From the NCBI GenBank assembly GCA_021813745.1, contig JAKAJO010000093.1, positions 1 through 64,000 of the forward strand: DNA of 64,000 bases, given 5' to 3'. Numbering within the stretch: the first letter of the stretch is position 1; the number at the start of each line of letters is the position of its first letter. Below, piece after piece: positions 17,036 through 30,968 of this stretch. This stretch comes from Acidobacteriota bacterium (GTDB lineage Bacteria; Acidobacteriota; Terriglobia; Terriglobales; Acidobacteriaceae). A program made the translations under genes and the position numbers. A model generated the notes under the pieces. It was not told the DNA's origin and searched no databases. It saw only the letters and a program-made list of their open reading frames with translations.

Positions 17036-17329
17036 ATGATGAATCGGAAACAGTTTATCGGACAGGCAAAAATGCTCAAGGTTCTGGCCCACGAGTCGCG
17101 GTTAATGATTGTAGACCGCCTGAGTCGAGGGGCGTGCTCGGTCGGGGATCTCAGAGACCTTGTCGGCGGCGACCTGTCGACGGTGTCAAAGCACCTGGCG
17201 CTTCTGCGCGCGCACGGCATTGTCGAAGACAAGCGCGAGGGAACCACTGTGTTCTATCGGCTGCTGACGCCTTGTGTCTGCAACTTTTTCACCTGTGCTA
17301 CGCAGGTTTTGAAAGAGCGGAAGCGATGA
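17036..17329 (+). CDS. arsR: ArsR/SmtB-family metalloregulator, copy 1
   Basis: The protein has 97 residues. A winged helix is clear: KMLKVLAHESRLMIVDRLSR, the recognition-helix region GDLSTVSKHLALLRAHGIV, then the EGTTVFYRLL wing. The C terminus has clustered cysteines (TPCVCNFFTC). A further Cys lies at about 34 in RGACSVGDL, just before the recognition helix. Cys thiols of this kind bind As(III) or soft metals and release the repressor from DNA. It is about 80% identical to the ArsR at 18451. No structural gene follows directly; the next 400 bases are empty. Confidence 0.92.
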   Translation: MMNRKQFIGQAKMLKVLAHESRLMIVDRLSRGACSVGDLRDLVGGDLSTVSKHLALLRAHGIVEDKREGTTVFYRLLTPCVCNFFTCATQVLKERKR

Positions 17330-18450: not shown

Positions 18451-18744
18451 ATGGACAAGCGCAATCCTTTCTCGAATCAGGCAAAGATGCTGAAGGCTCT
18501 GGCCCATGAATCCCGCCTCATGATTGTGGACCGGCTAAGTCGTGGGGAATGCTCGGTGGGCGACCTCCACGAACTAGTGGGAGGCGATCTTTCGACCGTG
18601 TCGAAGCATCTGGCGCTGTTGCGTGCGCACGGGGTTGTCGAGGACAGGCGCGAGGGGACCAGCGTGTATTACAGGCTGCTGACGCCCTGTGTATGCAACC
18701 TGTTTACCTGCGCGACCGATGTGCTGAAGGAGAGGAAGAGATAG
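18451..18744 (+). CDS. arsR: ArsR/SmtB-family metalloregulator, copy 2, operon leader
   Basis: The protein has 97 residues, the same length as copy 1 and differing at about twenty positions. The winged helix and the C-terminal TPCVCNLFTC cluster are conserved, as is the Cys in RGECSVGDL. It heads the arsM-to-arsG operon, whose next gene starts 78 bases downstream. It probably represses that operon until trivalent arsenic binds. Two nearly identical sensors so close together suggest a recent duplication and allow cross-regulation. Confidence 0.93.
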   Translation: MDKRNPFSNQAKMLKALAHESRLMIVDRLSRGECSVGDLHELVGGDLSTVSKHLALLRAHGVVEDRREGTSVYYRLLTPCVCNLFTCATDVLKERKR

Positions 18745-18822
18745 CACCGGATTACTTCGCCGGGAGAGTCACAGATGCAGCGGTTGATGGGACAAGCAGC
18801 TTGACGAATGGGGATCTGAAAC

Positions 18823-19917
18823 ATGGACGTGGAAGAAGCAGTCAGGCAAAAGTACGGCAAAGCGGCGCTTCGCGCAGTAGCGTGCGATGGCGGCTGTAGC
18901 TGCGGTTCAAATGTGCTCACCGGAATCGCACAGGCAGGGCGCGCTTCCCACGAGATCTATGATGCGGGCGACACCACCGGAATTCCGGCTGCAGCAATTG
19001 CCGCATCGCTGGGATGCGGCAATCCCGCTGCACTGGCTCAATTGAAAGAAGGAGAAACTGTCCTTGATCTGGGATCCGGCGGAGGAATCGATGTCTTCGT
19101 CTCGGCCCGGCGAGTGGGGCCGGGTGGCAAGGCCTACGGGCTTGACATGACCGATGAAATGTTGGCTTTAGCCTGCGAGAACCAGCGGCAGGCTGGGATT
19201 GATAACGTCGAATTTCTCAAGGGCCGCATTGAGAGTATTCCGCTGCCGGACTCGTCAGTGGACGTGGTGATCTCGAACTGCGTTTTGAATCTCTCAACTG
19301 ACAAAAGTCAGGTCCTCCGGGAAGCCTTCCGCGTTCTCAAGCCCGGAGGGCGCTTTGCTGTGTCCGATGTCGTGCTCTGTGGCGAGATTCCATCGCTGGT
19401 CTGCGGCAATCCGCAGCTGTGGACTGGGTGTCTAGCCGGAGCGATGCAGGAAGAGGAGTATAAGGCGGGACTGATCGAAGCAGGATTTGTGGAACCGGCC
19501 ATTGAGCCAACCCGGATCTTCCAGGCCTCCGATGTCCGCGAGTTTCTCTCTACGGTCGGAGAGGATGCCATTGCTCTCGCCGGGGAGTTAGATGGAAAGG
19601 TGATGAGCGCAGCCGTGCGCGCCGCCAAGCCTGCTGCGGGCGGCGCAACTTCAATGAAAGGACATGCTATGCCGAAGATTCAGATTCTGGGTACAGGCTG
19701 TGCGCGCTGTAAGCAGCTCACGGCGAACACTGAGAAGGCCGTTCAGGGGCTTGGCATCCAAGCGGAGATCGAAAAGGTGACAGAGATCAAGGAGATTCTC
19801 AAGTTTCAGATTTTGATGACTCCGGGTCTGGCCATCAATGGGAAGGTGAAGTCCGCGGGCCGCGTACCGGATCCTGCGGAGATTCGCGAGATGCTGCTGG
19901 AGGAAGGGGGCAACTAA
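18823..19917 (+). CDS. arsM: ArsM arsenite methyltransferase fused to a small thioredoxin domain
   Basis: A 364-residue fusion. Residues 1-275 are an ArsM-type SAM methyltransferase: an N-terminal Cys cluster (ACDGGCSCGS), motif I VLDLGSGGGIDVFVSARRVG near 80-99, and conserved Cys in SNCVLNLS and TGCLAGAMQEEEY used for As(III) binding. From Met283 a complete MTH895-type small thioredoxin follows (IQILGTGCARCKQLTANTEK, then MTPGLAINGKVKSAGRVP). The internal ATG at 19669 keeps an AAAGGA sequence at ribosome-binding distance, so a free thioredoxin might also be made. The enzyme would methylate As(III), and the fused CxxC could supply reducing equivalents. The stop abuts the next ATG (TAAATG). 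Confidence 0.9.
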   Translation: MDVEEAVRQKYGKAALRAVACDGGCSCGSNVLTGIAQAGRASHEIYDAGDTTGIPAAAIAASLGCGNPAALAQLKEGETVLDLGSGGGIDVFVSARRVGPGGKAYGLDMTDEMLALACENQRQAGIDNVEFLKGRIESIPLPDSSVDVVISNCVLNLSTDKSQVLREAFRVLKPGGRFAVSDVVLCGEIPSLVCGNPQLWTGCLAGAMQEEEYKAGLIEAGFVEPAIEPTRIFQASDVREFLSTVGEDAIALAGELDGKVMSAAVRAAKPAAGGATSMKGHAMPKIQILGTGCARCKQLTANTEKAVQGLGIQAEIEKVTEIKEILKFQILMTPGLAINGKVKSAGRVPDPAEIREMLLEEGGN

Positions 19918-20295
19918 ATGGCAGAACAGCTTCCAGGTTTACTGATGTGCGTGTGCACGGGCAAGTGTCCCGGCTTCGAAAAGATGGACATCTGGGACTT
20001 CATTAACCGTGCTCGAGTGGAACTCCCCGTGGAGTATGGCGCGATCCATCCCCAGTTGTGCGAAGTCGATGGCGACCGCTTCCTAGGTGATTTTCTTGAA
20101 GCCAAGCGCCCCGTTGTGATCGCTGCTTGCGCTCCCAACATGCAATACAAAATGTTTCGCGATGCCTTTGCCGCAAAGGGGATGGATGTGAAGCGTGACA
20201 TGACGCCGCTGGACATCCGCGATCTGACGACCGATGAGGCCATCGATAAGGTATCAGCGAAGCTGCGCGAGATGGGGGTGAAGAGCGATGTCTGA
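19918..20295 (+). CDS. HdrA N-terminal-like protein
   Basis: The protein has 125 residues. MCVCTGKCPG near the start and VVIAACAPNMQYKMFRDAF, then MTPLDIRD, resemble the N-terminal region of heterodisulfide reductase subunit A. That subunit has a similar Cys-rich start, an AACSPRMHxxxF-like block and an xxNIRE block. The FAD domain and ferredoxin clusters of full HdrA are absent. The next gene supplies two iron-sulfur clusters separately and overlaps this one by 8 bases. A role in passing electrons or thiol groups to the following DGC/lipoyl proteins is inferred from position alone. Confidence 0.55.
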   Translation: MAEQLPGLLMCVCTGKCPGFEKMDIWDFINRARVELPVEYGAIHPQLCEVDGDRFLGDFLEAKRPVVIAACAPNMQYKMFRDAFAAKGMDVKRDMTPLDIRDLTTDEAIDKVSAKLREMGVKSDV

Positions 20296-20575
20296 AGCAA
20301 CTTTCATGGGTGTCGCCAGGGACAAGATTACCTGGCACCCGACGATTGACTACGACAAATGCAACTTCTGTATGGAGTGCGCAACCTTTTGTCCGCACCG
20401 CGTCTTCGAGCAGCGTGAGGGCGACCGCAGGCTGGTCGTCGCCAACCCAAACAACTGCGTGGTCTTTTGTCGAGCCTGCTCGAAGACCTGCGGTCCGGAT
20501 GCGCTCTCGTTTCCCGACAAGCCTGCGACCATCGCGCAGATCAAGGCGATCCGTGAGCAGGAGAGTGTGCAATGA
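20288..20575 (+). CDS. Ferredoxin with two [4Fe-4S] motifs, one atypical
   Basis: The protein has 95 residues. The first cluster motif is CNFCMECATFCP (CxxCxxxxxxCP-like spacing). The second, CVVFCRACSKTC, has an extra residue between its first two cysteines. Both lie in a compact ferredoxin fold with no signal peptide, so the protein is cytosolic. It overlaps the HdrA-like gene by 8 bases and the DGC-GcvH gene by 4 (ATGA). A dedicated electron carrier for the downstream carrier and zinc-binding proteins is the simplest reading. Confidence 0.8.
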   Translation: MSEATFMGVARDKITWHPTIDYDKCNFCMECATFCPHRVFEQREGDRRLVVANPNNCVVFCRACSKTCGPDALSFPDKPATIAQIKAIREQESVQ

Positions 20576-21426
20576 ACAGCGCGATTCTATCCTGCACTGG
20601 GCTCGATAAACCCGAAGGGTCAGTCGCGCGCGAGGTTGCGATCCGCATGGCCTCCGCGGCGGGCAGCGAAATCATTTGCCCGGTGCTGTTGAATCGCTCG
20701 CTGGCCCGCTACAAGAAGGTACTCGCTGAGAATCCTCTGATCGTGGTCGACGGTTGCTCGACGCGCTGTGCCAGCAAACTTGCGGAAAGTCTGGACCTCA
20801 AAATCGATCGTAAGGTTCTGGTTGCGGACGGGCTGAAGTCTTCCGGATTGACGCTGGAGCCAACGCTCAACCTGGGAGCGAATGGTCTGGCACTGGCACA
20901 AACCATCGTCGACGGTCTGGTGCAAAGTTTAACCGCCCCGGTTTCGGCCGTGCTGTCTACTGCACAGTCGACAGAATTTCCTCCGCCTAGGGAGTACCTT
21001 GTCGTAACCCACGACAAGTTCGAGTTTCGCATTCCGACTGCGGATTACTGGTTCAATGAGAACGATGTCTGGGTGCGGCCGCTGGGCGGTGTTGCGCGCG
21101 TGGGAATCTCCGACTACATGCAGCAGAGCCTGACCGACATCAACTTTGTCGACGCGCCTGCCATGGATCTGACGGTCGAGCAGTTCGGCGAGCTGGGCAC
21201 GCTTGAATCTTCCAAGGCGGTGTTTGAAGTCGTGGCTCCGGTAGCTGGCACGGTTGTAGCCGTGAATCCGGAAGTCATTTCCAATCCCACCCTGATTAAC
21301 GAAGACCCATACGGGAAGGGATGGATCGTGGAGTTGAAGTTGGGTAACTGGCCCGAAGACAGGGAATTGCTTTTAAACTCGGATGCTTATGCGAGGTCCG
21401 TAAAGCACAAGGCAGAAGAAGCGTGA
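20572..21426 (+). CDS. DGC-domain / GcvH-like lipoyl carrier fusion
   Basis: A 284-residue fusion. Residues 1-125 form a DGC domain, a putative zinc-binding family: SCTGLDKPEGS near the start and the signature VVDGCSTRC at 58-66. Residues 140-284 are a glycine-cleavage H-protein domain (VGISDYMQQSLTDINFVD, NEDPYGKGW). The lipoylation site is Lys215 in ESSKAVFEV, encoded at 21214-21216. No glycine-cleavage genes (gcvT, gcvP) are near, so this carrier is not for glycine decarboxylation. Lipoyl carriers of the LbpA type serve other pathways such as sulfur oxidation. Here the setting is an arsenic operon with its own lipoate ligase. Dihydrolipoyl groups bind trivalent arsenic strongly, which suggests an arsenical carrier (inference). 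Confidence 0.82.
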   Translation: MNSAILSCTGLDKPEGSVAREVAIRMASAAGSEIICPVLLNRSLARYKKVLAENPLIVVDGCSTRCASKLAESLDLKIDRKVLVADGLKSSGLTLEPTLNLGANGLALAQTIVDGLVQSLTAPVSAVLSTAQSTEFPPPREYLVVTHDKFEFRIPTADYWFNENDVWVRPLGGVARVGISDYMQQSLTDINFVDAPAMDLTVEQFGELGTLESSKAVFEVVAPVAGTVVAVNPEVISNPTLINEDPYGKGWIVELKLGNWPEDRELLLNSDAYARSVKHKAEEA

Positions 21427-21439
21427 GAGGCGCGCACGG

Positions 21440-21868
21440 ATGGCACAGACATTGAAAGAAGGAGATGTATTGGTCATACCCTGCAGCGGGATCGGCAAGG
21501 TGCATGGGTTGATCGGCCGCGAAGCCACGTACATGGTGACGGATGAAATGGCCTCGGAGAACACAGCCACGCTTTGCCTGGCATTGCTCGTCAAGGGGGA
21601 TCCGGAGGCGGTAGACGCGGTCAAGAGCCATCACTGCATCACCATTGATGGATGCGCGAAGGCCTGCGCTCAGAAGAATGTGGAGATATCTGGCGGCCGC
21701 GTTGCAAAAGCGATTCAAGTAGCCGAGGCGTTCCGTAATTTCCGTGGAGCCAAGCCCGGCACTGCGACGGCGCTGACAGAGGACGGCTGGAAGATCACAC
21801 AGGCGATTGCCGATAGCATCACATGCGAGGCGGCGAACTTGCGGGCACAGGAGAGTGCGGCGCTATGA
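21440..21868 (+). CDS. DGC-domain putative zinc-binding protein 1
   Basis: The protein has 142 residues. PCSGIGKVHGLIGREATY near 17-34 and CITIDGCAKACAQKN near 68-82 are the two signatures of the DGC domain, with conserved Cys residues likely to bind a metal. A further TC is near the C terminus. There is no signal peptide or membrane segment. The gene starts 13 bases after the DGC-GcvH fusion and overlaps the next DGC gene by 4 bases (ATGA). The family has no established biochemical function. Confidence 0.75.
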   Translation: MAQTLKEGDVLVIPCSGIGKVHGLIGREATYMVTDEMASENTATLCLALLVKGDPEAVDAVKSHHCITIDGCAKACAQKNVEISGGRVAKAIQVAEAFRNFRGAKPGTATALTEDGWKITQAIADSITCEAANLRAQESAAL

Positions 21869-22569
21869 GCACGAACACCGCCAAAGTGGGCATCATCTCG
21901 TGCAGTGGTGAGGCTCTTCCCGAAGGCACCATTTCGCGGCTTGCGGCGCGTCGCGTTCTCGAACTGCTGCGCCCGGACCGAACTGTAACACTTTGTCTGC
22001 CGCTGTTTCTGGCCGGCAATGAGGGCGAGCGGAACTTTGCTCGGACCCATCCGACGATCACCATCGACGGGTGCGGCAAGCAGTGCGCGAAGTGGGGCAC
22101 CGAGAAACACAGCGGGCCGGTAAGCGTTTCGCTGGTTGTGCCTGAGATTTTGAAAAGCACGAACGGTGGTTGCCACTGCTCGACCCGTGCGCTGTCAGAG
22201 GATGATACCGAGGCGGTGTGGGCCGTCGCCGAGCGTATTGCTGCTGAAGTAGATTCCGTGCTGGCATCGACTGCGCCGGCCGTCGCCGAGAATGCGGGGT
22301 CCGACACAGGGCCAGGTCATTGCGCATGTTCGAGTCCGCTCCCAGGTGGGAAGCTCACGATTGGCAGCAAAACAGTAGAGATTCCAGGGCTGCCGCTGAT
22401 CTTTGCGCAATTTGCCGAGAAAGCGACGATAACCAATAGCGATCAGGGTGCCGCGCTGCTGGATTTGGTCAAAATCTACCACCCGATTCCAGCAAAAGAG
22501 CAGGAAGCATATAAGGATGCCCTTCTCGCTGAATATCAGAAGTTCGTAGGAATGCAGGCGGCAAAGTGA
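21865..22569 (+). CDS. DGC-domain putative zinc-binding protein 2, extended
   Basis: The protein has 234 residues from the ATG at 21865. The DGC domain covers about 1-150: SCSGEALPEGTISRLAARR and TITIDGCGKQCAKWG, plus a Cys pair in GGCHCSTRAL. A CACSS motif near 165 follows, then a short domain (about 168-234) with TIGSKTVEIPGLPLIFAQFA and a helical tail. The tail resembles a small mobile partner domain but is not recognised with confidence. It is the third DGC module in the operon. The stop overlaps the lplA start (TGATG). Confidence 0.7.
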   Translation: MSTNTAKVGIISCSGEALPEGTISRLAARRVLELLRPDRTVTLCLPLFLAGNEGERNFARTHPTITIDGCGKQCAKWGTEKHSGPVSVSLVVPEILKSTNGGCHCSTRALSEDDTEAVWAVAERIAAEVDSVLASTAPAVAENAGSDTGPGHCACSSPLPGGKLTIGSKTVEIPGLPLIFAQFAEKATITNSDQGAALLDLVKIYHPIPAKEQEAYKDALLAEYQKFVGMQAAK

Positions 22570-23318
22570 TGGATGTCCTGTGCTGGTCAGCCCCAACTGT
22601 GGCTGAAAATATTGCGTTCGATGAGAGCGTGGCCAGATCGGCTTTTTCAACAGGCCGACGCCTGCTGCGTTTCTGGTGGGGCGGTCCGGCTGCGGTTGTG
22701 ATGGGATCCAGTGAACGGGCGGAGCAGGCGGTGAACTCCGAAGCGTGCGAGCAATTGGGCGTGGAAGTGCTCAAGCGGTGTACCGGCGGCGGCACGGTGC
22801 TCCAAACCAGTGGCGTACTGAACTACTCGCTGGTAACGCCCGCACCGGATCGACTCGACCTGATGGCTGGCTTTCGTCAGGGTACGGATCTGATCCGCGC
22901 TTTGCTTGAAGCTTTCGGCATTGCCGGTGGAGTGCAGGGAACGTGCGATGTCGCGGTCGCAGGGCGGAAGATCTCCGGTAACGCGCAGGCAAGGAGGTGG
23001 AAGTCTTTGCTCGTGCATGGAACTTTGCTGGTGGACTTCGATTTTGATCTGGCAGAGAAGGTTCTTCCACATCCACTGCGCGAACCCGAGTACCGCCGGG
23101 CACGCCGCCACCGTGACTTTCTTGTGACCCTGCGAGAACTCGGTATTTGGGAAGATCGCGAAACCATCGAAGATATGGCCGTTCAAGCGGGCGTGCGGAT
23201 TTTCAGTGCATTCGCCCCAACGCGCCCGGCGGAGACAGTGCTCCGGGGCATGCTCCCGCAGGCAAATTTGCAGAGCAACCCTGCAGCCATGCCCCTGGCT
23301 GAATGGAGTGCGCAATGA
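22569..23318 (+). CDS. lplA: Lipoate-protein ligase A family enzyme
   Basis: The protein has 249 residues from the ATG at 22569. Family motifs are visible: the RCTGGGTVLQ block near 75 (RRxGGGxV in LplA), GTCDVAVAGRKISGNAQARR near 130 with the catalytic Lys in GRKISG, and HGTLLVDFDFD near 155. These enzymes attach lipoate (or octanoate) to a carrier Lys through an acyl-AMP. The gene follows the DGC-GcvH carrier in the same operon, so Lys215 of that protein is the obvious target. No lipoyl synthase is in the window, so free lipoate or a housekeeping LipA must complete the cofactor. Confidence 0.85.
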   Translation: MDVLCWSAPTVAENIAFDESVARSAFSTGRRLLRFWWGGPAAVVMGSSERAEQAVNSEACEQLGVEVLKRCTGGGTVLQTSGVLNYSLVTPAPDRLDLMAGFRQGTDLIRALLEAFGIAGGVQGTCDVAVAGRKISGNAQARRWKSLLVHGTLLVDFDFDLAEKVLPHPLREPEYRRARRHRDFLVTLRELGIWEDRETIEDMAVQAGVRIFSAFAPTRPAETVLRGMLPQANLQSNPAAMPLAEWSAQ

Positions 23319-23824
23319 ACGCGAAGACATTTTTCAGAATGGCTTTGTTTCTATTTGTCGCAGCGTGCATCTTTTTCTTCTTTCGCGATCACTTCGGCGC
23401 CCAGCCTGAGCAGGCTGTGCTCAGCCCGAGACCGACCGCTGCGCCTTCTTCGTCGCATGTAACGCACGCGGAGTCAATACCGGATACGACCCGCGTCATC
23501 GCGTATTTCTTCCATGGACATCGTCAATGTCCTTCCTGCCGTCATCTTGAGGCGATTTCAGAGAGGGCCATCGCGGATGGATTCCCCGACGCAATGAGAA
23601 GCGGCACAATCCAGTGGCGGGCCGTGGACATTGAAGATGCGGTCAATCAACACTTCGCCTCGGAATATCAGATCTACTGGAGTTCTTTGGTCCTGGTAAA
23701 GGTCACGGCGGGCAAGCCTGTTACATACAAAAATCTGGAGAAGGCATGGCAGATTCAGCAGAACGATCTAGCGCTCAGAAGCTATGTGCGGGCCGAAGTT
23801 CGCGCGTATCTCGGAGCGAGTTGA
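23315..23824 (+). CDS. arsF: ArsF-like thioredoxin-fold protein, membrane anchored
   Basis: The protein has 169 residues from the ATG at 23315, which overlaps the lplA stop (ATGA). One N-terminal helix (ALFLFVAACIFFFFRDHF) anchors a periplasmic thioredoxin-like domain with the active-site block FFHGHRQCPSCRHLEAISER near 65-84. It matches the ArsF proteins of arsEFG operons, described as part of a nitroreductase pair for aromatic arsenicals. The CPSC dithiol and its place before an ArsG-like transporter support this call. The small thioredoxin domain fused to ArsM might stand in for ArsE, which is a guess. Confidence 0.7.
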   Translation: MNAKTFFRMALFLFVAACIFFFFRDHFGAQPEQAVLSPRPTAAPSSSHVTHAESIPDTTRVIAYFFHGHRQCPSCRHLEAISERAIADGFPDAMRSGTIQWRAVDIEDAVNQHFASEYQIYWSSLVLVKVTAGKPVTYKNLEKAWQIQQNDLALRSYVRAEVRAYLGAS

Positions 23825-23825
23825 A

Positions 23826-24512
23826 ATGTCCACATTTTGGATTGCCATTACGACTGCCTTATGGCTGGGAGTTCTGACCTCGATCAGCCCTTGCCCGCTC
23901 GCCACCAATATCGCGGCCGTTTCTTATGTTGCCAGATCGGTATCGCGTCCAGGATTCATGCTGATGAATGGGGTGTTGTACTCCTTGGGCAGAGCGATAG
24001 CCTATGTGGCAATTGCCGCTCTCCTGGTAAGCAGTTTGCTCTCCATTCCGCAAGTGTCGATGTTTTTGCAGAAGTACGTCGACCTATTGCTTGGTCCGAT
24101 CCTTATTCTGGCGGGCATGTTCCTGGTTGGGCTCCTACGGCTGCCACAAATGGGGATTTCCGCAAGTTCCAGGATCGGTGAACGACTGGCAAAGAACTTC
24201 GGAGGAGCATTTCTGCTGGGCGTGTTGTTCGCGCTTTCGTTCTGCCCGATTTCTGCCGCGTTGTTCTTTGGCAGCCTCATTCCACTCGCTGCATCCTCGC
24301 GATCTTCGATCCTCCTGCCCGCTCTTTTTGGACTCGGGACTGCGTTGCCAGTATTCGCTTTTGCTGTACTCTCCGCATTCGGGGCTGGATCCATCTCCGG
24401 AGTATTTGACAGGCTGACTTCCGTCGAGGTTTGGACGCGACGGCTCACGGGGATCCTGTTCATCTTGATCGGAATCGATTTGTCATGGAACTATCTGATC
24501 CTCCGAGGATGA
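23826..24512 (+). CDS. arsG: ArsG-like / DsbD-family membrane transporter
   Basis: The protein has 228 residues with six membrane helices in two related halves, as in CcdA/DsbD. Each half has a conserved Pro-Cys region: LTSISPCPLATNIAAV near 16-31 and LFALSFCPISAALFFG near 137-152. The pair of Cys residues in opposite repeats is typical of DsbD-type thiol-electron transfer. It matches ArsG, called an aromatic arsenical efflux permease in arsEFG operons. The alternative is a plain transmembrane thiol reductase that feeds ArsF, and the sequence cannot separate the two. It is the last gene of the arsR2 operon. Confidence 0.72.
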   Translation: MSTFWIAITTALWLGVLTSISPCPLATNIAAVSYVARSVSRPGFMLMNGVLYSLGRAIAYVAIAALLVSSLLSIPQVSMFLQKYVDLLLGPILILAGMFLVGLLRLPQMGISASSRIGERLAKNFGGAFLLGVLFALSFCPISAALFFGSLIPLAASSRSSILLPALFGLGTALPVFAFAVLSAFGAGSISGVFDRLTSVEVWTRRLTGILFILIGIDLSWNYLILRG

Positions 24513-24617: not shown

Positions 24618-24992
24618 ATGAATCCGGAACAGAAGCCAACCGTTGAGCAGGTCTTCGGCATGATGCGTAAAACTATGGGGTCGATTCCATCGGCCATCGA
24701 GAAGGCAGTCCAGGTGGACGAGGGGCTGTTGTATGAGCACCTGCGCTCACGCGGCTACGCCATGCCCACTGACGGAGCGCTGGATGAAGAGACCCGCACA
24801 CTCATCTATCTTGCCTCGGCACTTGCAGCCAGCAGTAAAGCCTGCATTCAGGCAATGGCCAACAAAGCCAAAATGCAGGGAATCGCGCCGGAGAAAGTGC
24901 TCGAAACCGTGCGCATTGTTCGCTTCGCATTGGCGACCAAAATCGTCGGCGACGCCGAACCTGTCTTCGAAGCGATGGCGCAGAAGCGATAG
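24618..24992 (+). CDS. AhpD-like carboxymuconolactone-decarboxylase family protein
   Basis: The protein has 124 residues from the ATG at 24618, with AGGAGAAG before it. It is all-helical with SSKACIQAMANKAKMQGI near 74-91, the AhpD/CMD core. The CxxC of true AhpD is reduced to a single Cys here, so a disulfide-reductase function is doubtful. It lies 105 bases after arsG, behind a weak TCACG/CGTGA hairpin with a T-rich tail at about 24552-24574. It may therefore be transcribed separately or by read-through. The specific function is unknown. Confidence 0.65.
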   Translation: MNPEQKPTVEQVFGMMRKTMGSIPSAIEKAVQVDEGLLYEHLRSRGYAMPTDGALDEETRTLIYLASALAASSKACIQAMANKAKMQGIAPEKVLETVRIVRFALATKIVGDAEPVFEAMAQKR

Positions 24993-25060: not shown

Positions 25061-26140
25061 ATGAACAAGATTCTTCGGAACTATTTGAAGTGGGGCGTTC
25101 CTATTCAACTCATCATCTTCATGATGGTATGGCTGAGCGGGGCTTTCCACCGCGGCACGATTCATCCCGGAAAGGTAACGGCGGCAGAGACAACGACTGC
25201 TGGCATTGAGTTTTATACCGTCGCCGCCGTAACCGAGCCGCAGGTTGTGGAAGCAGTGGGGACGGTGCAGCCGCAATTCAAGACCTCGGTCTCCGCCCGC
25301 GTGACCGCCAATGTTGTCGAGTTGCCGGTTACCGCCGGACAGCATGTTCGCAGCGGCGACCTGCTAGTCCGGCTCGATGACCGGGATCTGCGCGCAAGAA
25401 AGCAACAGGCGCAGGAAGCACTGCGCCGTGCCGAAGCAACGCGAGATCTGGCGCAGAGCGACTATACGCGGGATAAGGCTCTCTATGAGAAGCAGGTCAT
25501 TCCGAAGTCGGAATTTGATGAGACGACGTTGCGCCTGAAGACCTCAACCGCCGATGTTGCTGCATTCCAGCAGGCAGAGCATGATGCGGAATTTGCCTTT
25601 GGCTATGCCGTCATTCGTGCTCCCTATGATGCGGTCGTTGTCGACAAGCTCTCCGATGTCGGCGACATGGCTACGCCCGGCAAGCCGCTGCTAACTCTCT
25701 ACGAGAGTGGCAAGCTGTGGCTGGAGGCAGCTGTTCCAGAGGAACAGGCGGGCACGCTGCGCATCGGCAAGACCTACGAGATCCACCTGGATTCGCTTAA
25801 TAAGCAGATGCAGGGCCGGTTGATGGAGATCGTGCCTTCAGCCGACTCGTCCAGCCGCACAATCACTGCGCGTGTCGCGCTGCCCTATACCCAGAACGTC
25901 TTTCCTGGTCTCTTTGGCCGGATGATGATTCCGGTCGGCGAGCACGCACGCATCATGATTCCGCAGGCAGCGGTCTTGCGCGTGGGTCAGCTCACCATGG
26001 TGGATGTGGATCAGGCCGGGATGCTGCGCCGGCGTTCCGTGCAGGTGGGCCGCACCATCGGCAACCAGGTTGAGATTCTCAGCGGACTCGCCGCCGGCGA
26101 GAAGGTATCGCTCACTCCACGGAAGGAGCAGCAGCCGTGA
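25061..26140 (+). CDS. RND efflux periplasmic adaptor (membrane fusion protein)
   Basis: The protein has 359 residues. The N-terminal anchor (VPIQLIIFMMVWLSGAF) is followed by a lipoyl-like hairpin (VSARVTANVVELPVTAGQHV, then LLVRLDDRDL), an alpha hairpin near 110-170 and the second lipoyl half with FAFGYAVIRAPYDAVV. The beta-barrel and membrane-proximal domains complete it. It links the inner-membrane RND pump at 26137 to the TolC-type channel at 29577. The last four bases overlap the pump start (GTGA). The substrate is not evident; the neighbouring ars genes make metalloid or organoarsenical export worth considering. Confidence 0.9.
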   Translation: MNKILRNYLKWGVPIQLIIFMMVWLSGAFHRGTIHPGKVTAAETTTAGIEFYTVAAVTEPQVVEAVGTVQPQFKTSVSARVTANVVELPVTAGQHVRSGDLLVRLDDRDLRARKQQAQEALRRAEATRDLAQSDYTRDKALYEKQVIPKSEFDETTLRLKTSTADVAAFQQAEHDAEFAFGYAVIRAPYDAVVVDKLSDVGDMATPGKPLLTLYESGKLWLEAAVPEEQAGTLRIGKTYEIHLDSLNKQMQGRLMEIVPSADSSSRTITARVALPYTQNVFPGLFGRMMIPVGEHARIMIPQAAVLRVGQLTMVDVDQAGMLRRRSVQVGRTIGNQVEILSGLAAGEKVSLTPRKEQQP

Positions 26141-29100
26141 AGCACGATGGCGAAGGCGTGACAATTCGGATTGTCCGCACCTTTCTGGAATCGCATCTGT
26201 CGATCGTGCTGATCCTGCTTGCGCTTATCGCAGGCGGCGCGGCACTGATGGTCACGCCGCGCGAAGAGGAACCGCAGATCGTCGTTCCCAACGCCGATGT
26301 CTTTCTTTCTTATCCGGGCCACTCGGCTGAAGAGGTTGAGAAGCTCATCTCGGCGCCAATTGAACGCTATCTCTACCAGATTGACGGAGTGGAGTATGTG
26401 TATTCGCGCTCGATGCCTGGGCAGAGCATCGTTACGGTCCGCTTCTATGTGGGACAGGACCGCGAGCGCAGTCTGGTCAAACTCAACAAGTGGCTCACGC
26501 AGAATGCGGATAAGATCCCGGCGGGCGTCACGGGCTACGTCGTCAAGCCGCGCGAAACCGACGATGTTCCCATCGTTACATTCACTCTAACCAGCCCGAG
26601 CCACGACAATTACGAGCTTCGGCGCATTGCCGAAGAGGTGCAGAACCGGCTGCAGGCAGTCCCTGATTCAGGTATCAGCTTCATCGTCGGAGGGCGTCCG
26701 CGCGAAGTGCTGGTGCGGCTGAATCCGGAGGAAATGGCCGGCTTCCATGTGACGCCTCTTGATATCTATCATGCGCTGGCGGGAGCGGACAGCAGCCTTC
26801 AATCCGGTTCCTTTACGCGCGGCGATCGCGATATTCGCGTGGAGACTGGCAAATTCTTTGCGGCCGCATCCGATGTTGCATCCTGTGTTGTGGGCACCTC
26901 CGGCGAACGGCCTGTGTATTTGCGCGATGTGGCAGATGTGACGGATGGCCCCGGCGAAGTGACCGACTACGTGCGCCTCAGCCAGGGCGCCGCATGGAAC
27001 CTGAACAAGCACGCCGGTTCGGCGGGCACATGGGTCGGTGAAGTCAATCATCCGCGGCAACCGTTGCTGCTTGAGCAGCCCGCTGTCACTCTTGCTGTTG
27101 CCAAGCAAAAGGGCACCAACAACGTCACTGTGGCACGAGCCCTGCTGGCCAAGATGGACCAGATCAAACGCGAGGTGCTGCCTGCCGATGTGAACGTTGC
27201 TGTCACCCGCAACTACGGCATCACCGCGGATGACAAGGTCAACGAGCTTGTCGAGGGACTAGTTGTCGGCATCATTGTGGTCATTGCGCTCTTAACCATC
27301 GGCTTGGGCTTCGCGGACGCCATGGTGGTTGCGGTTGCTGTTCCCTGCGTCTTCGGATTCACTCTGGCGGCAAACTATTTGTTCGGGTTCTCCATTAATC
27401 GCGTGACCCTGTTCGCCTTGACTGTCGCTCTTGGCCTGCTGGTTGACGACCCCATTGTCGATGTCGAAAACATCCATCGTCACTTCCGCATGGCGGGCAA
27501 GGCGACGCGGCAGATCGTCCTTGAGGCGGTCAACGAGGTGCGGCCGCCGCTGATTGCAGCAACCATCGCCGTCATGATTTCGTTCTCGCCGCTCTTCTTT
27601 GTCACCGAGGAGATGCACGATTACCTGCGGCCGATGGCAGTCAATGTGCCCATGACCATGCTGATGTCCATGGTCGTCTCCTTCACCATTACGCCCTGGC
27701 TTGCGTATTGGGTGATGCGTCGGCGCTACAAGCCTGGCAAGGACGGCAAGGTCCCCGAGAAAGAGGCAGGCGAAACCGATGTGAAGCAGATGTGGACCTA
27801 TCGCTTCTTCCGTCCGCTGCTCGAACCATTGCTCACGAGGCGAAGGAACCGCGTCCTCTTTATTGGAGCGATCATCATTGCCTTCATCGGCAGCCTCATG
27901 CTTGTCGGAACCCGGCGCGTCAAGCCCAAGCAGTTGCCCTTCGACAACAAGGATGAACTGCTGCTGGTGCTGGACATGCCAAGCGGCACAAGCCTGGAAA
28001 GAACGGACGCGGCCGCGCGCGACTTTGAAAGCTATCTCCGCACGGTTCCGGAAGTCACCGACTTCGAGTCATATGTCGGCACTGCCTCACCGTTCGACTT
28101 CAACGGCATGTCGCGCCGCTACTTTCTCCGGCAAGCGCCCGATAAAGGCGACATCCGCGTCAACCTGATTCACAAGACGGACCGGACGCAAGGCAGCCAC
28201 GAAATTGCGCTGCGATTGCGCAGTGACCTGACAGCGATTGCCGTACGTGATGGGGTGAAGCTGAAGATCGTCGAACTGCCCGCTGGGCCGCCCGTAATGT
28301 CCACCGTAGTGGCCGCCGTCTATGGCCGGCCCGGCGACAGCTATGAAGGTCTGATCCACGATGCGCAGATCGTGAAGCACAGGATGCAGCAGGAACCTGG
28401 AATCGTGGATCTGGACGATACCGTCGAGGAAAACCAAGAGAAGCAGGTCTTCACCGTGGATAAGGCCAAGGCCGCATTGAACGGAGTGACGACAGACGAC
28501 ATCAATCGCACGGTCAGTCTCGCACTGTCGGGAACGACGGCCGGGACGGTTGCAATCCCCACGGAGCGCAATCCATTGCCAATCGTGCTGTGGCCGGAGC
28601 GCGCGGACCGCTCGAGCACGGCAGATCTATCCCGCATCTACGTTCGTGGCCAGAAGGGAAACATGGTTCCCATGTCGCAGTTAGGAAGCTGGCAACAGAC
28701 GATTGAGAACAAGACTATCTACCACCGGAATCTGGAGCGTGTCGTGTACGTTACGGCGGAGATGGCCGGGATGCCTCCGGTTGAAACCATTCTTGACATT
28801 CGCGCCGACCAGCGGACTCCAGCGCAACTTGCAGCTGCGGGCTATCCCGAGAAAGATGCAACACCACGCCCGCTGAATACGCGGACGCTGTTCAAAAAAG
28901 GCGGAGGCATCCTGTGGGCCGTGCCGGACGGCGTCACTGTCAACTGGTGGGATGAGGGAGAGATGCGCCTCACCATGCACATCTTCCGCGATCTCGGAAT
29001 CGGCTTCCTCGGGGCGCTGCTCGCCATCTACATTCTGCTCAGCCAGCAGACGGGCTCGTTCCGGTTGCCGATTGTCATCATGATGGCGATTCCTCTCATG

Positions 29101-29580
29101 GTCATCGGGGTCATGCCGGGCTTCTGGCTGCTGAATCACCTTGGCGTGCGACAGGTCGGAGGCTTCGCCGACCCAATGTTCTTCAGCTCGCCCGCCATGA
29201 TCGGCATGATTGCCCTGGCCGGCATCGTCACGCGAAACTCCATCATCATCGTGGACTTCGTGCACATCGCCCTTGCGCGCGGGCGCACGCTGATTCAGGC
29301 TCTGATCGAGAGCTGCTCGGTGCGACTGCGTCCGATCCTGCTTACATCGGGTGCTGCCATGCTGGGTGCGTGGCCCATCACACGGGATTCGGTCTTCGCG
29401 GGCCTTGCGTGGTCGCTCATCTTTGGGCTCTTCGCTTCCACCATCTTCAGCCTGTTTGTTATCCCTGTTGCCTATTACATGATGTATGCGAAGCAACCTG
29501 GACATGGGCTGCCCGAGAACTTTCATCTGCGGGAGGTCGAGCCGACGGCTGACGCAACAGAAGCTGGGGTAACGCAATGA
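26137..29580 (+). CDS. RND-family efflux pump, inner-membrane subunit
   Basis: A 1147-residue protein with the twelve-helix RND architecture and two large periplasmic loops. Landmarks are PREEEPQI in the first loop, the TM4 region GLLVDDPIVDVENIHRHFR with the proton-relay acids, and the second half GFLGALLAIYILL to GIVTRNSIIIVDFVHIA. It is about 100 residues longer than AcrB; the extra length lies partly in a cytoplasmic stretch near 525-560 and in the second loop near 880-930. The VDDPIVDVEN motif matches a group of acidobacterial and proteobacterial pumps distinct from CusA and AcrB. Start is a GTG overlapping the adaptor stop. Confidence 0.92.
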   Translation: MKHDGEGVTIRIVRTFLESHLSIVLILLALIAGGAALMVTPREEEPQIVVPNADVFLSYPGHSAEEVEKLISAPIERYLYQIDGVEYVYSRSMPGQSIVTVRFYVGQDRERSLVKLNKWLTQNADKIPAGVTGYVVKPRETDDVPIVTFTLTSPSHDNYELRRIAEEVQNRLQAVPDSGISFIVGGRPREVLVRLNPEEMAGFHVTPLDIYHALAGADSSLQSGSFTRGDRDIRVETGKFFAAASDVASCVVGTSGERPVYLRDVADVTDGPGEVTDYVRLSQGAAWNLNKHAGSAGTWVGEVNHPRQPLLLEQPAVTLAVAKQKGTNNVTVARALLAKMDQIKREVLPADVNVAVTRNYGITADDKVNELVEGLVVGIIVVIALLTIGLGFADAMVVAVAVPCVFGFTLAANYLFGFSINRVTLFALTVALGLLVDDPIVDVENIHRHFRMAGKATRQIVLEAVNEVRPPLIAATIAVMISFSPLFFVTEEMHDYLRPMAVNVPMTMLMSMVVSFTITPWLAYWVMRRRYKPGKDGKVPEKEAGETDVKQMWTYRFFRPLLEPLLTRRRNRVLFIGAIIIAFIGSLMLVGTRRVKPKQLPFDNKDELLLVLDMPSGTSLERTDAAARDFESYLRTVPEVTDFESYVGTASPFDFNGMSRRYFLRQAPDKGDIRVNLIHKTDRTQGSHEIALRLRSDLTAIAVRDGVKLKIVELPAGPPVMSTVVAAVYGRPGDSYEGLIHDAQIVKHRMQQEPGIVDLDDTVEENQEKQVFTVDKAKAALNGVTTDDINRTVSLALSGTTAGTVAIPTERNPLPIVLWPERADRSSTADLSRIYVRGQKGNMVPMSQLGSWQQTIENKTIYHRNLERVVYVTAEMAGMPPVETILDIRADQRTPAQLAAAGYPEKDATPRPLNTRTLFKKGGGILWAVPDGVTVNWWDEGEMRLTMHIFRDLGIGFLGALLAIYILLSQQTGSFRLPIVIMMAIPLMVIGVMPGFWLLNHLGVRQVGGFADPMFFSSPAMIGMIALAGIVTRNSIIIVDFVHIALARGRTLIQALIESCSVRLRPILLTSGAAMLGAWPITRDSVFAGLAWSLIFGLFASTIFSLFVIPVAYYMMYAKQPGHGLPENFHLREVEPTADATEAGVTQ

Positions 29581-30968
29581 AATCTGCAATGGGATTCTTC
29601 CTGGTGTTCTTCGTGACTTCCACTGCACTGCCTGGCCAACAGCAGGCAACTACGCCGCAGCTTACGTTGCAGCAGGCGGTTACCTATGCCATGGAGCATA
29701 GCCCCGATCTGCAGTCCGCAGTCGCCGAAACAACCAAGCGCCAAGGCAACGTAACCACAGCTCGATCCGCGCTGCTGCCTGAACTGGATGTGGCCGGAGA
29801 CCTTGGCCGCAGCCGGCTCCAACATGGCTATCCGGGCGGAGCGGCTCCGTCCATCCTGCGCTTTTCGCAGACGACGTATTCAGGCAGCGCGGACCTGCAC
29901 ATGCTGGCATGGGATTTCCAGAAATCGCAACTGGAACTCGACGCGACACGAGAGCGCCTCTCTGCCGCGAAGATACTCACAGACCGCAGCAGGCAGGAGC
30001 TTATCTTTCAGGTTGCGCAATTCTATCTGGACGCTCTGACGTACGAGGACTTGCTGCGTTCTGCCGCGCTCACCCGCAAGAGTTTGACTTCCCTGCTCGA
30101 CCGTACTAACGAACTGGTGAATGCCGGCCGCGCCGTGCCTGTCGATGCCTTTAAGATTCAGACGCAGATCGCGCAGATCGACAGCGATTCGGCTACTCTC
30201 GAAGCTGGCCGCCAGGCGGCACTCAGTTCCCTGGCCGCCACGATGGGATACCAGGGGCAATTGCCCGCGCTCCAGTATTCGCCCGCGTCGGAGGTGACAC
30301 CGTCTGCAAGCGTCGACCAGCAACAACTTGTGCAGACTGCCCTGCAGCAGAGGCCGGATCTGAAAGCAGCCATGTTCGACACGAAGTCAGCGGAAGACCT
30401 GGTGAGCGCTGCTCGACGCGCCTACTGGCCGCGCATTGATTTTCGCGCCACTGCGATTCAGTACGGCGGGCAAAACCCTGTTGGGTTTCCCGCTCTCATC
30501 GGACAGATGCTGCCTTCTCTGCATGTGCCGAGCGGCTCTACTCCAGGCGCAGTGAATGACTGGACCGTAGGAGTGCACATCGGAGTGCCGCTCTTTGACA
30601 GTGGGCGCCGGAGTGGCCAGATCAAGGCTGCGAAAGCGCAGGCGGAGCAGGCACGGCTCGCACAGAGTAAGACTGGCCTGAATGTCGCCCGCGAGGTGCA
30701 GACATCGTATGCCGAGTTGCAAAGCGCTCAGGCGCGCGTCAAGGCCATGCAGGAGGCCGTGGTGCAGTCGCAGGAGATCCTGAAGAATGAACAAACGAAG
30801 TATGAGGTAGGCCGGACGGTAATCAACTTTGTGCTTGAGGCGGAAGTTGGCGTGCTGAGCAGCCAATCCTTGCTCTTGCAGGCACAGCGTTCTGAAGCGA
30901 TCGCCTCACTAGCTCTCGCACTGGCCACAGGCCAAATCCAGGCCGATTCACCCGGCATGAATCCATAG
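29577..30968 (+). CDS. TolC-family outer-membrane efflux channel
   Basis: The protein has 463 residues. The signal peptide (MGFFLVFFVTSTALPGQQQA) is followed by two repeats of the OEP domain: LTLQQAVTYAMEHSPDLQSA near 28-47 and the equivalent LVQTALQQRPDLKAAMFD near 250. Long coiled helices make up the periplasmic tunnel (near 95-190 and 345-440). The start overlaps the pump stop (ATGA), completing a three-gene export operon. It belongs to the usual length class of TolC relatives. Confidence 0.9.
   Translation: MKSAMGFFLVFFVTSTALPGQQQATTPQLTLQQAVTYAMEHSPDLQSAVAETTKRQGNVTTARSALLPELDVAGDLGRSRLQHGYPGGAAPSILRFSQTTYSGSADLHMLAWDFQKSQLELDATRERLSAAKILTDRSRQELIFQVAQFYLDALTYEDLLRSAALTRKSLTSLLDRTNELVNAGRAVPVDAFKIQTQIAQIDSDSATLEAGRQAALSSLAATMGYQGQLPALQYSPASEVTPSASVDQQQLVQTALQQRPDLKAAMFDTKSAEDLVSAARRAYWPRIDFRATAIQYGGQNPVGFPALIGQMLPSLHVPSGSTPGAVNDWTVGVHIGVPLFDSGRRSGQIKAAKAQAEQARLAQSKTGLNVAREVQTSYAELQSAQARVKAMQEAVVQSQEILKNEQTKYEVGRTVINFVLEAEVGVLSSQSLLLQAQRSEAIASLALALATGQIQADSPGMNP

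What the first reader, a model, noticed from the sequence alone, without database searches (positions are those of the whole stretch)
18451..24512. Arsenic operon carrying its own lipoyl carrier, lipoate ligase and HdrA/ferredoxin pieces
Seen: ten genes on one strand, most overlapping by 1-8 bases: arsR, arsM-thioredoxin, HdrA-N-like, ferredoxin, DGC-GcvH fusion with lipoylation site Lys215, DGC, DGC, lplA, arsF-like, arsG-like. Known: lipoyl dithiols bind trivalent arsenicals tightly; LbpA-type carriers serve sHdr sulfur oxidation; arsEFG handles aromatic arsenicals. Inference: a dedicated dihydrolipoyl protein may hold As(III) or methyl-As(III) as a substrate carrier between ArsM, the reductive HdrA/ferredoxin module and the ArsF/ArsG membrane system. 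I know of no described pathway with this set.
Basis: partly seen in the sequence, partly recalled or inferred. Interest (0 to 1): 0.93.

Follow-up and report, generated by a model that had tools for sequence, protein, structure and literature searches.

The report
Arsenic-linked lipoyl protein gene module
Soil Acidobacteria carry a special copy of a lipoic-acid-bearing protein inside arsenic resistance gene clusters, in some relatives fused to the enzyme that reduces arsenate, which suggests that these cells turned a well-known target of arsenic into a tool against it.

Summary
The ten-gene operon is real, and DGC-GcvH has the lipoylation lysine at residue 215. The core trx-hdrAN-fdx-DGC/GcvH-DGC-DGC, plus lplA where the contig continues, recurs at 11 loci in 10 genomes; ArsM is a variable partner (fused at 4 of 11). 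A second architecture, stand-alone GcvH with two DGC proteins and OsmC, lies at 8 further loci. Arsenic markers lie in 16 of these 19 loci, in 0 of 18 loci of the canonical gcvH of the same 18 genomes, and in 1 of 76 ordinary gcvH loci elsewhere. The 19 H domains form one clade (98/93) with a private DKF.F motif; all keep the lysine. Most telling, 16 of the 120 best protein hits fuse this H protein to an arsenate reductase. A lipoyl protein dedicated to arsenic is thus well supported. It is not LbpA: the two hallmark cysteines are absent. Whether the dithiol carries As(III), reduces ArsC, or both, is inferred, not shown; I favour an arm that takes As(III) and passes it on, kept reduced by thioredoxin and ferredoxin. 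Ten full-text searches found no description.

The parts
18451..18744 (+). arsR: ArsR/SmtB repressor, Cys34, 80, 82, 87
   Evidence: NF033788 85.5 bits; Cys positions; similar arsR directly before trx in most relatives
18823..19917 (+). arsM fused to a thioredoxin (CARC at 293-296); ArsM domain about 2-272, thioredoxin 285-358
   Evidence: NF008823 332.5 bits, TIGR00412 96.5 bits; thioredoxin without fused ArsM at 7 of 11 loci
19918..20295 (+). hdrAN: 125-aa HdrA N-terminal-like protein, Cys11, 13, 17, 48, 71
   Evidence: weak match to HdrA 7bkb E=0.013; the other 10 loci are 84-97% identical
20288..20575 (+). ferredoxin with two four-Cys cluster motifs
   Evidence: PF00037/PF12838; Cys 25,28,31,35 and 57,61,64,68
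20572..21426 (+). DGC-H-protein fusion; lipoylation Lys215; DGC Cys8, 36, 62, 66; no Cys in the H domain
   Evidence: PF08859 and PF01597; Lys215 and Cys positions; K215 invariant in the 20-row alignment
21440..21868 (+). DGC2: DGC-domain protein
   Evidence: PF08859 53.6 bits
21865..22569 (+). DGC3: DGC domain plus C-terminal domain with CxC at 153-155
   Evidence: PF08859 57.1 bits; alignment
22566..23318 (+). lplA: lipoate ligase catalytic domain
   Evidence: PF21948 122.3 bits; at 9 of 9 loci not cut by a contig end
23315..23824 (+). arsF-like thioredoxin-fold protein (fold recalled) with CPSC (Cys72, 75)
   Evidence: NF040494 95.3 bits; Cys
23826..24512 (+). arsG-like membrane protein of the DsbD_2 family
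   Evidence: NF040495 268.1 bits; PF13386
24618..24992 (+). small protein that I take from recall as carboxymuconolactone-decarboxylase/AhpD-like, one invariant Cys; probable further member
   Evidence: relatives at 8 of 11 loci, the window included; one invariant Cys in 8 rows; its own Pfam result was never shown (scanned only inside, whose list of 25 does not name it)
25061..30968 (+). tripartite efflux genes (membrane fusion, RND, outer membrane; names from recall and from the relatives' families) downstream; relation uncertain
   Evidence: gaps; related or EmrB-type efflux genes lie downstream at 8 of 11 loci; HlyD, OEP, ACR_tran

Best explanation
It is an arsenic detoxification module built round a dedicated lipoyl H protein. 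LplA attaches lipoate to Lys215 (inferred). The dihydrolipoyl arm is the dithiol partner of arsenic enzymes: it takes trivalent arsenic, as it is formed by arsenate reductase or as it enters, in a dithioarsenite ring, and passes it to the three- or four-Cys sites of the DGC proteins and on to ArsM or an exporter (ACR3, ArsG, ArsP). Thioredoxin, HdrA-N and ferredoxin, or OsmC and other thiol proteins in relatives, keep the arm reduced. Shown: gene content, order, clade, conserved lysine, arsenic neighbourhood, ArsC fusion in relatives. Inferred: lipoylation, arsenic binding, direction of transfer.
For: Arsenic markers at 16 of 19 loci (8 of 11 fused, 8 of 8 stand-alone) against 0 of 18 canonical gcvH loci of the same 18 genomes, 0 of 18 gcvH loci of other acidobacteria and 1 of 76 in the named collection. 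Fusion to arsenate reductase in 16 of the 120 listed best of 5177 hits, CX5R loop kept in all 16; ArsC overlapping the H gene in L225 and next upstream in L221. One clade 98/93. DKF.F in 19 of 19 against 0 of 112. Lysine motif in 240 of 240 listed proteins of two searches, the window's own included. A separate canonical GcvH in 15 of 15 genomes searched. Dihydrolipoamide binds the arsenical melarsen oxide with a constant of 5.47e9 per M (PMC7072575, passages).
Against: No biochemical or expression data. Three of 11 fused loci show no arsenic marker (L168 on a 4.1-kb contig, L170, L173). The marker queries came from these and related loci, so relatives there are found more easily. The fused and stand-alone H proteins sit on long stems (1.03 and 0.88) on few columns, so long-branch attraction is not excluded. 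The ArsC fusions found are close relatives of each other, one branch only. One DGC2 (L170) has a stop at its DGC cysteine. Both DGC structure models were poor (mean pLDDT 53.8 and 57.7), so an arsenic site in DGC is a guess from cysteines. Rhodanese occurs in 3 flank proteins of the stand-alone type.
Confidence: 0.5

Rival explanations
1. Redox relay only: the lipoyl arm never holds arsenic but carries electrons from thioredoxin and ferredoxin to arsenate reductase, OsmC and other thiol enzymes during arsenic stress.
For: An OsmC-like protein at 8 of 8 stand-alone loci; Ohr, which I recall as an OsmC relative, is reduced by lipoylated proteins (PMC5962072, passages); ferredoxin, Trx and DsbD-like genes; the ArsC fusion fits a reductant equally well.
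Against: Fused loci with no ArsC marker in the stretch searched keep the core (the window, L171, L173); three DGC domains with 3-4 conserved cysteines each are more than a relay needs (inference).
Confidence: 0.3
2. Sulfur carrier: the arm carries sulfane sulfur, either for sulfur oxidation or to make thioarsenicals.
For: LbpA of the sHdr pathway is a lipoyl protein with its own LplA (PMC6067878, abstract and passages); some ArsR-type repressors sense sulfane sulfur (PMC12423496, start of abstract in listing); rhodanese in 3 flank proteins, one next to the H gene in L222, and Cys/Met metabolism enzymes in 2.
Against: No HdrB-type CCG protein in the window's ten genes, and own-genome CCG hits lie on other contigs; no DsrE, TusA or CCG among the 25 commonest flank families of either type, though rarer families were not listed; LbpA cysteines absent.
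Confidence: 0.12
3. Ordinary H protein: glycine cleavage or lipoyl relay to other enzymes, beside arsenic genes by chance.
For: The GCV_H domain and the lipoyl lysine are kept.
Against: Separate clade, a canonical copy elsewhere in 15 of 15 genomes searched, no GCV_T or GDC-P among the 25 commonest flank families, recurring arsenic neighbourhood.
Confidence: 0.03
4. Carrier-bound organoarsenical synthesis: As(III) on the lipoyl arm is the substrate of ArsM or of the radical SAM enzyme, as on a carrier protein in a biosynthetic line.
For: ArsM fused at 4 of 11 loci; radical SAM/SPASM protein at 5 of 8 stand-alone loci; arsenical efflux proteins ArsG, ArsP.
Against: Neither enzyme is constant; the three radical SAM proteins put to NCBIfam are nearest to a tungsten-cofactor maturase model and below its cut-off (293-306 bits, cut-off 380).
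Confidence: 0.05

Closest known systems
LbpA with its LplA in the sHdr sulfur oxidation system
   Same: A GcvH-like lipoyl protein, a lipoate ligase gene beside it, Hdr-type neighbours, an ArsR-type regulator (PMC6067878, PMC12423496).
   Different: No conserved cysteines in the H domain, no HdrB/C, only an HdrA N-terminal-like piece, arsenic neighbours, DGC proteins.
Glycine cleavage H protein (GcvH)
   Same: Domain, lipoyl lysine, about 40% identity.
   Different: Own clade, DKF.F in place of the EH.W motif, fused to DGC or ArsC, not with glycine genes among the commonest neighbours; a canonical copy lies elsewhere.
arsEFG operon for aromatic arsenicals (recalled; NCBIfam names)
   Same: ArsE-type thioredoxin, ArsF and ArsG families.
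   Different: The lipoyl and DGC core is extra and keeps its order where ArsF and ArsG were not found.
Thioredoxin-coupled arsenate reductase (pI258 type)
   Same: An arsenate reductase with the same Pfam domain, named so by its sources, is fused to the H protein in relatives.
   Different: A lipoyl domain is attached, so the thiol partner may be lipoyl in place of, or besides, thioredoxin. The window shows no ArsC in the 20 kb searched.
ArsD/ArsA arsenic metallochaperone system
   Same: Would likewise hand As(III) on by thiols (recalled).
   Different: Lipoyl cofactor and DGC proteins; both systems occur together in L176 and L225.

Membership tests
LbpA (sHdr lipoate-binding protein) | Strictly conserved lipoyl lysine | tested here: met
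   Lys215; invariant in 20 aligned rows, motif in 120 of 120 listed hits
LbpA (sHdr lipoate-binding protein) | Two strictly conserved cysteines, near N- and C-terminus (PMC6067878, passages; some archaeal LbpAs excepted) | tested here: not met
   No Cys in the window H domain; any Cys at all in 13 of 120 (residues after 140 of DGC-GcvH hits) and 19 of 119 (after the DKF motif, stand-alone type)
LbpA (sHdr lipoate-binding protein) | Encoded with hdrB/hdrC-like (CCG) genes | tested here: not met
   No CCG in the ten genes; own-genome CCG hits on contigs C2, C113, C32, not on C79 or C67
GcvH of glycine cleavage | GCV_H domain with lipoyl lysine | tested here: met
   PF01597 102.7 bits; just below the two NCBIfam GcvH cut-offs (NF002270 113.3 of 117; TIGR00527 93.8 of 115.85)
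GcvH of glycine cleavage | Groups with canonical GcvH | tested here: not met
   Outside the 112 ordinary rows, branch 98/93, few columns and long stems
GcvH of glycine cleavage | Works with P, T and L proteins | not testable with these tools
   Only indirect: no GCV_T or GDC-P among the 25 commonest flank families
Lipoate-protein ligase | LplA/LipB catalytic domain | tested here: met
   PF21948 122.3 bits; TIGR00545 94.1 bits against cut-off 280, so not over the cut-off of that equivalog
arsEFG-type arsenical operon | ArsE-type thioredoxin, ArsF and ArsG families present | tested here: met
   TIGR00412, NF040494, NF040495 all over cut-off in the window
arsEFG-type arsenical operon | Action on nitro- or amino-aromatic arsenicals | not testable with these tools
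   needs assays
HdrA | HdrA N-terminal domain followed by FAD and other domains (layout recalled) | tested here: not met
   125 aa only; weak match to the N-terminal part of a 671-residue HdrA

The most novel reading that the evidence does not exclude
A lipoyl swinging arm carries a metalloid: As(III) rides as a cyclic dithioarsenite on a dedicated H protein between arsenate reductase, DGC thiol sites and methyltransferase or exporter. This would be a new class of lipoate-dependent system and a carrier-protein pathway for arsenic.
Probability: 0.4. Interest if true: 0.95.

Novelty: new variant of a known kind. Interest (0 to 1): 0.86.

Why it matters
Lipoyl groups are a classical target of trivalent arsenic. 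A lipoyl protein recruited into arsenic resistance would turn the target into the tool, add a further role of lipoate to central metabolism and sulfur oxidation, and give a first functional handle on the DGC family, of which one search alone scored 5790 relatives. It is directly testable: the protein is small, a ligase gene lies beside it, and natural ArsC fusions are ready-made test enzymes.

Tried and rejected
HdrA-N and DGC as one family: the cysteine patterns look alike to the eye, but profile comparison found nothing (probabilities 0.1%), with shallow alignments. DGC2 and DGC3 are related (99.4%).

Structure of DGC2 and DGC3: models with mean pLDDT 57.7 and 53.8, too poor for a fold search; none was made.

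Plasmid spread: a DGC3 relative (L221) had no match in 72,556 plasmid records. DGC-GcvH matched 136 records, none over 80% of the query; the 20 listed cover only the H part and its edge, mostly annotated gcvH.

ArsR site: the window protein has Cys34, 80, 82, 87. The A. rosenii repressor uses Cys41, 80, 82 (PMC11868830, passages). No alignment between the two was made, so I do not claim the same site.

Selenocysteine: an apparent TGA in hdrAN of L180 was only the end of the gene; the TGA in DGC2 of L170 stays open (no tRNA gene in either locus; the rest of that genome was not searched for selenocysteine genes).

AhpD-like role for the protein at 24618-24992: 8 relatives have one invariant Cys, not the AhpD CxxC (recalled).

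Greedy longest-ORF gene calling gave shadow genes and was replaced by a codon-weighted call, which still misses or shortens some small genes.

Papers: ten searches, seen as listings; the outline with abstract and passages of PMC6067878, and passages of PMC11868830, PMC7072575 and PMC5962072. PMC10579247 was opened for 'lipoyl' and concerns pyruvate dehydrogenase.
Full report
WHAT IS THERE. The window lies in a 4.6-Mb draft genome of 136 contigs, acidobacterial to judge by its named relatives. Between 18451 and 24512 ten genes run on the + strand: arsR, arsM-thioredoxin, an HdrA-N-like protein, a ferredoxin, DGC-GcvH, two DGC proteins, lplA, arsF, arsG. Families were checked with Pfam and NCBIfam. 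The names hold; HdrA-N rests on a weak match (E=0.013) to HdrA of known structure.

THE CORE IS SMALLER THAN THE OPERON. I searched the HdrA-N protein in overlapping draws of the phylum, order, class and family. Any match: 15 of 396, 15 of 397, 21 of 399 and 13 of 329 genomes. Strong matches (E below 1e-70): 2, 9, 3 and 9 of these, in all 10 genomes and 11 loci, so the module is rare. The own genome has two copies, 75% identical in DGC-GcvH. All 11 loci carry thioredoxin, HdrA-N, ferredoxin, DGC-GcvH, DGC2 and DGC3; lplA follows at all 9 loci not cut by a contig end. Arsenite methyltransferase is fused to the thioredoxin at 4 of 11; the other 7 have the thioredoxin alone. ArsG is found at 4 of 11 (in L176 as a fragment cut by the fetched edge) and ArsF at 5 of 11. 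So ArsM, ArsF and ArsG are optional.

A SECOND ARCHITECTURE. A search for the DGC family in 199 genomes of the phylum matched 14. Seven of these have tandem DGC genes of another type than the fused one; with the earlier locus L037 that makes 8 loci. At all 8 a stand-alone H protein lies with the two DGC genes, directly before them at 7 and with two genes between in L222, and an OsmC-like protein lies with them. A thioredoxin of the ArsE kind was called at 6 of 8 (not L221, L037), and a radical SAM/SPASM protein at 5 of 8. No lplA was found at these. A further DGC pair on a contig end in the genome of L037 (G1074:C657) was not examined. Of the 5 fetched single-DGC loci, 1 has arsenic markers (L227), and at none was an H protein called.

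IS ARSENIC THE CONSTANT NEIGHBOUR? I asked for ACR3, ArsC, ArsP, ArsM, ArsF, ArsG, ArsA or ArsD at fixed bit thresholds in each fetched stretch (4-20 kb). Fused type: 8 of 11. Stand-alone type: 8 of 8. Canonical gcvH of the 18 genomes that carry these loci: 0 of 18 (two of these stretches are only 5-6 kb). Ordinary gcvH of other acidobacteria: 0 of 18. Ordinary gcvH loci from the named collection: 1 of 76. The three negative fused loci are L168 (4.1 kb), L170 and L173. Fisher's test of 16 of 19 against 1 of 76 gave 3e-14; the loci are related, so that number must not be taken at face value. Query proteins for the markers came from these loci and a related one (L181), which favours them; against that, the one control hit (L053) scored 530 bits. 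A Pfam census (E up to 1e-8) took 101 of 119 listed flank proteins of the fused type (10 of 11 loci; left out: ArsR copies, the window's ArsM and ArsG, repeat efflux proteins) and 112 of 115 of the stand-alone type (left out: two efflux proteins, one very long protein). Commonest in the first: efflux proteins, LMWPc (ArsC-type), methyltransferases, SBF (ACR3), ArsR. In the second: OsmC, SBF, ArsR, ArsP, radical SAM, DsbD-type, LMWPc, thioredoxin. No glycine-cleavage enzyme, DsrE, TusA or CCG is among the 25 commonest of either; rhodanese is, with 3 members in the second. Only 25 of 70 and 25 of 83 families were listed.

THE H PROTEINS ARE ONE FAMILY. In a tree of 131 H domains the 19 arsenic-locus rows are one side of a branch with support 98/93, in 98% of 200 bootstrap trees. 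There are only 135 columns, and the fused and stand-alone groups sit on long stems (1.03 and 0.88), so long-branch attraction is not excluded; the shared motif argues against it. All 19 have DKF.F near the start; none of the 112 others has. All 19 keep the lipoyl lysine motif. In the two protein searches DKF.F is in 119 of 120 and 119 of 120 listed hits, the lysine motif in 120 of 120 and 120 of 120. The 15 genomes searched each hold a canonical H gene elsewhere, scoring 123-161 bits against 90-118 for the arsenic one.

THE FUSION. Of the 120 listed best of 5177 hits to the stand-alone H proteins, 16 are fusions of 282-296 residues: an arsenate reductase (PF01451) with the CX5R loop (CVHNSAR or CTHNSAR) and a downstream cysteine pair, then the H protein. 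Several are named arsenate reductase by their source. They are close relatives of each other. L224 carries such a fusion, with gap bases inside its ArsC part; in L225 arsC overlaps the H gene by 4 bases and in L221 it lies next upstream. DGC in one branch and ArsC in another are two different N-terminal fusions to the same H-protein family, and one partner is a known arsenic enzyme. This is the strongest single pointer to function.

HDRAN AND FERREDOXIN. Of more than 30 weaker HdrA-N hits I fetched 9 stretches; 5 hold arsenic markers and no H protein of this kind (L177, L181-L184), with ferredoxin called beside HdrA-N in L177, L181, L183 and L184. The other 4 hold no marker. They look like a separate redox pair that the fused type has taken in.

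HOW IT MAY WORK. Dihydrolipoyl dithiols bind trivalent arsenicals tightly (PMC7072575, passages). I think the arm takes As(III) from arsenate reductase or from the cell, passes it to the DGC cysteines (three or four conserved per domain; one exception, L170, below) and on to a methyltransferase or exporter, with thioredoxin, ferredoxin and HdrA-N, or OsmC and, in L221, a CoA-disulfide-reductase-like protein, keeping thiols reduced. A pure electron relay explains most of the same facts and cannot be set aside by sequence.

MEMBERSHIP. It works like LbpA but is not one by the tests: the two hallmark cysteines and the HdrB/C genes are absent. It is not the glycine-cleavage H protein by phylogeny. 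The own genome has a lipoyl synthase and a second gene of the ligase family, so it can probably make lipoate.

IN PRINT. Ten full-text searches listed no paper on a lipoyl or H protein in arsenic loci or on DGC-domain (PF08859) proteins and arsenic. The library holds open-licence papers only and I judged by titles and abstract starts, so this is weak evidence of absence.

Noticed in passing
G000:C67, locus L084 7127-10078: A second copy of the core in the same genome, with thioredoxin but no fused ArsM, beside ArsP and a chromate transporter; the contig ends in DGC3.
   Followed up: partly
L170 11289-11291: DGC2 has TGA exactly at the cysteine of its DGC motif: selenocysteine, mutation or sequencing error.
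   Followed up: partly
window 17036-17329: A second ArsR, similar to the operon's ArsR, about 1.1 kb upstream; similar ArsR pairs in L084, L169 and L170.
   Followed up: no
L219, L220, L222, L224, L225: Radical SAM/SPASM protein near the H-protein genes; the three scanned with NCBIfam are nearest to a tungsten-cofactor maturase model (TIGR04317) but below its cut-off.
   Followed up: partly
L176 7134-9734: An 866-aa frame with a ferredoxin-like start and hydantoinase A parts sits between hdrAN and fdx, with a second piece of hdrAN at its end: an insertion with duplication, or an assembly fault.
   Followed up: no
flanks of both architectures: DUF169 and FmdE domain proteins each occur twice in both flank censuses.
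   Followed up: no
window 14991-16613: A 540-aa protein with CXXCH haem motifs (Paired_CXXCH_1) shortly upstream of the ArsR genes.
   Followed up: no
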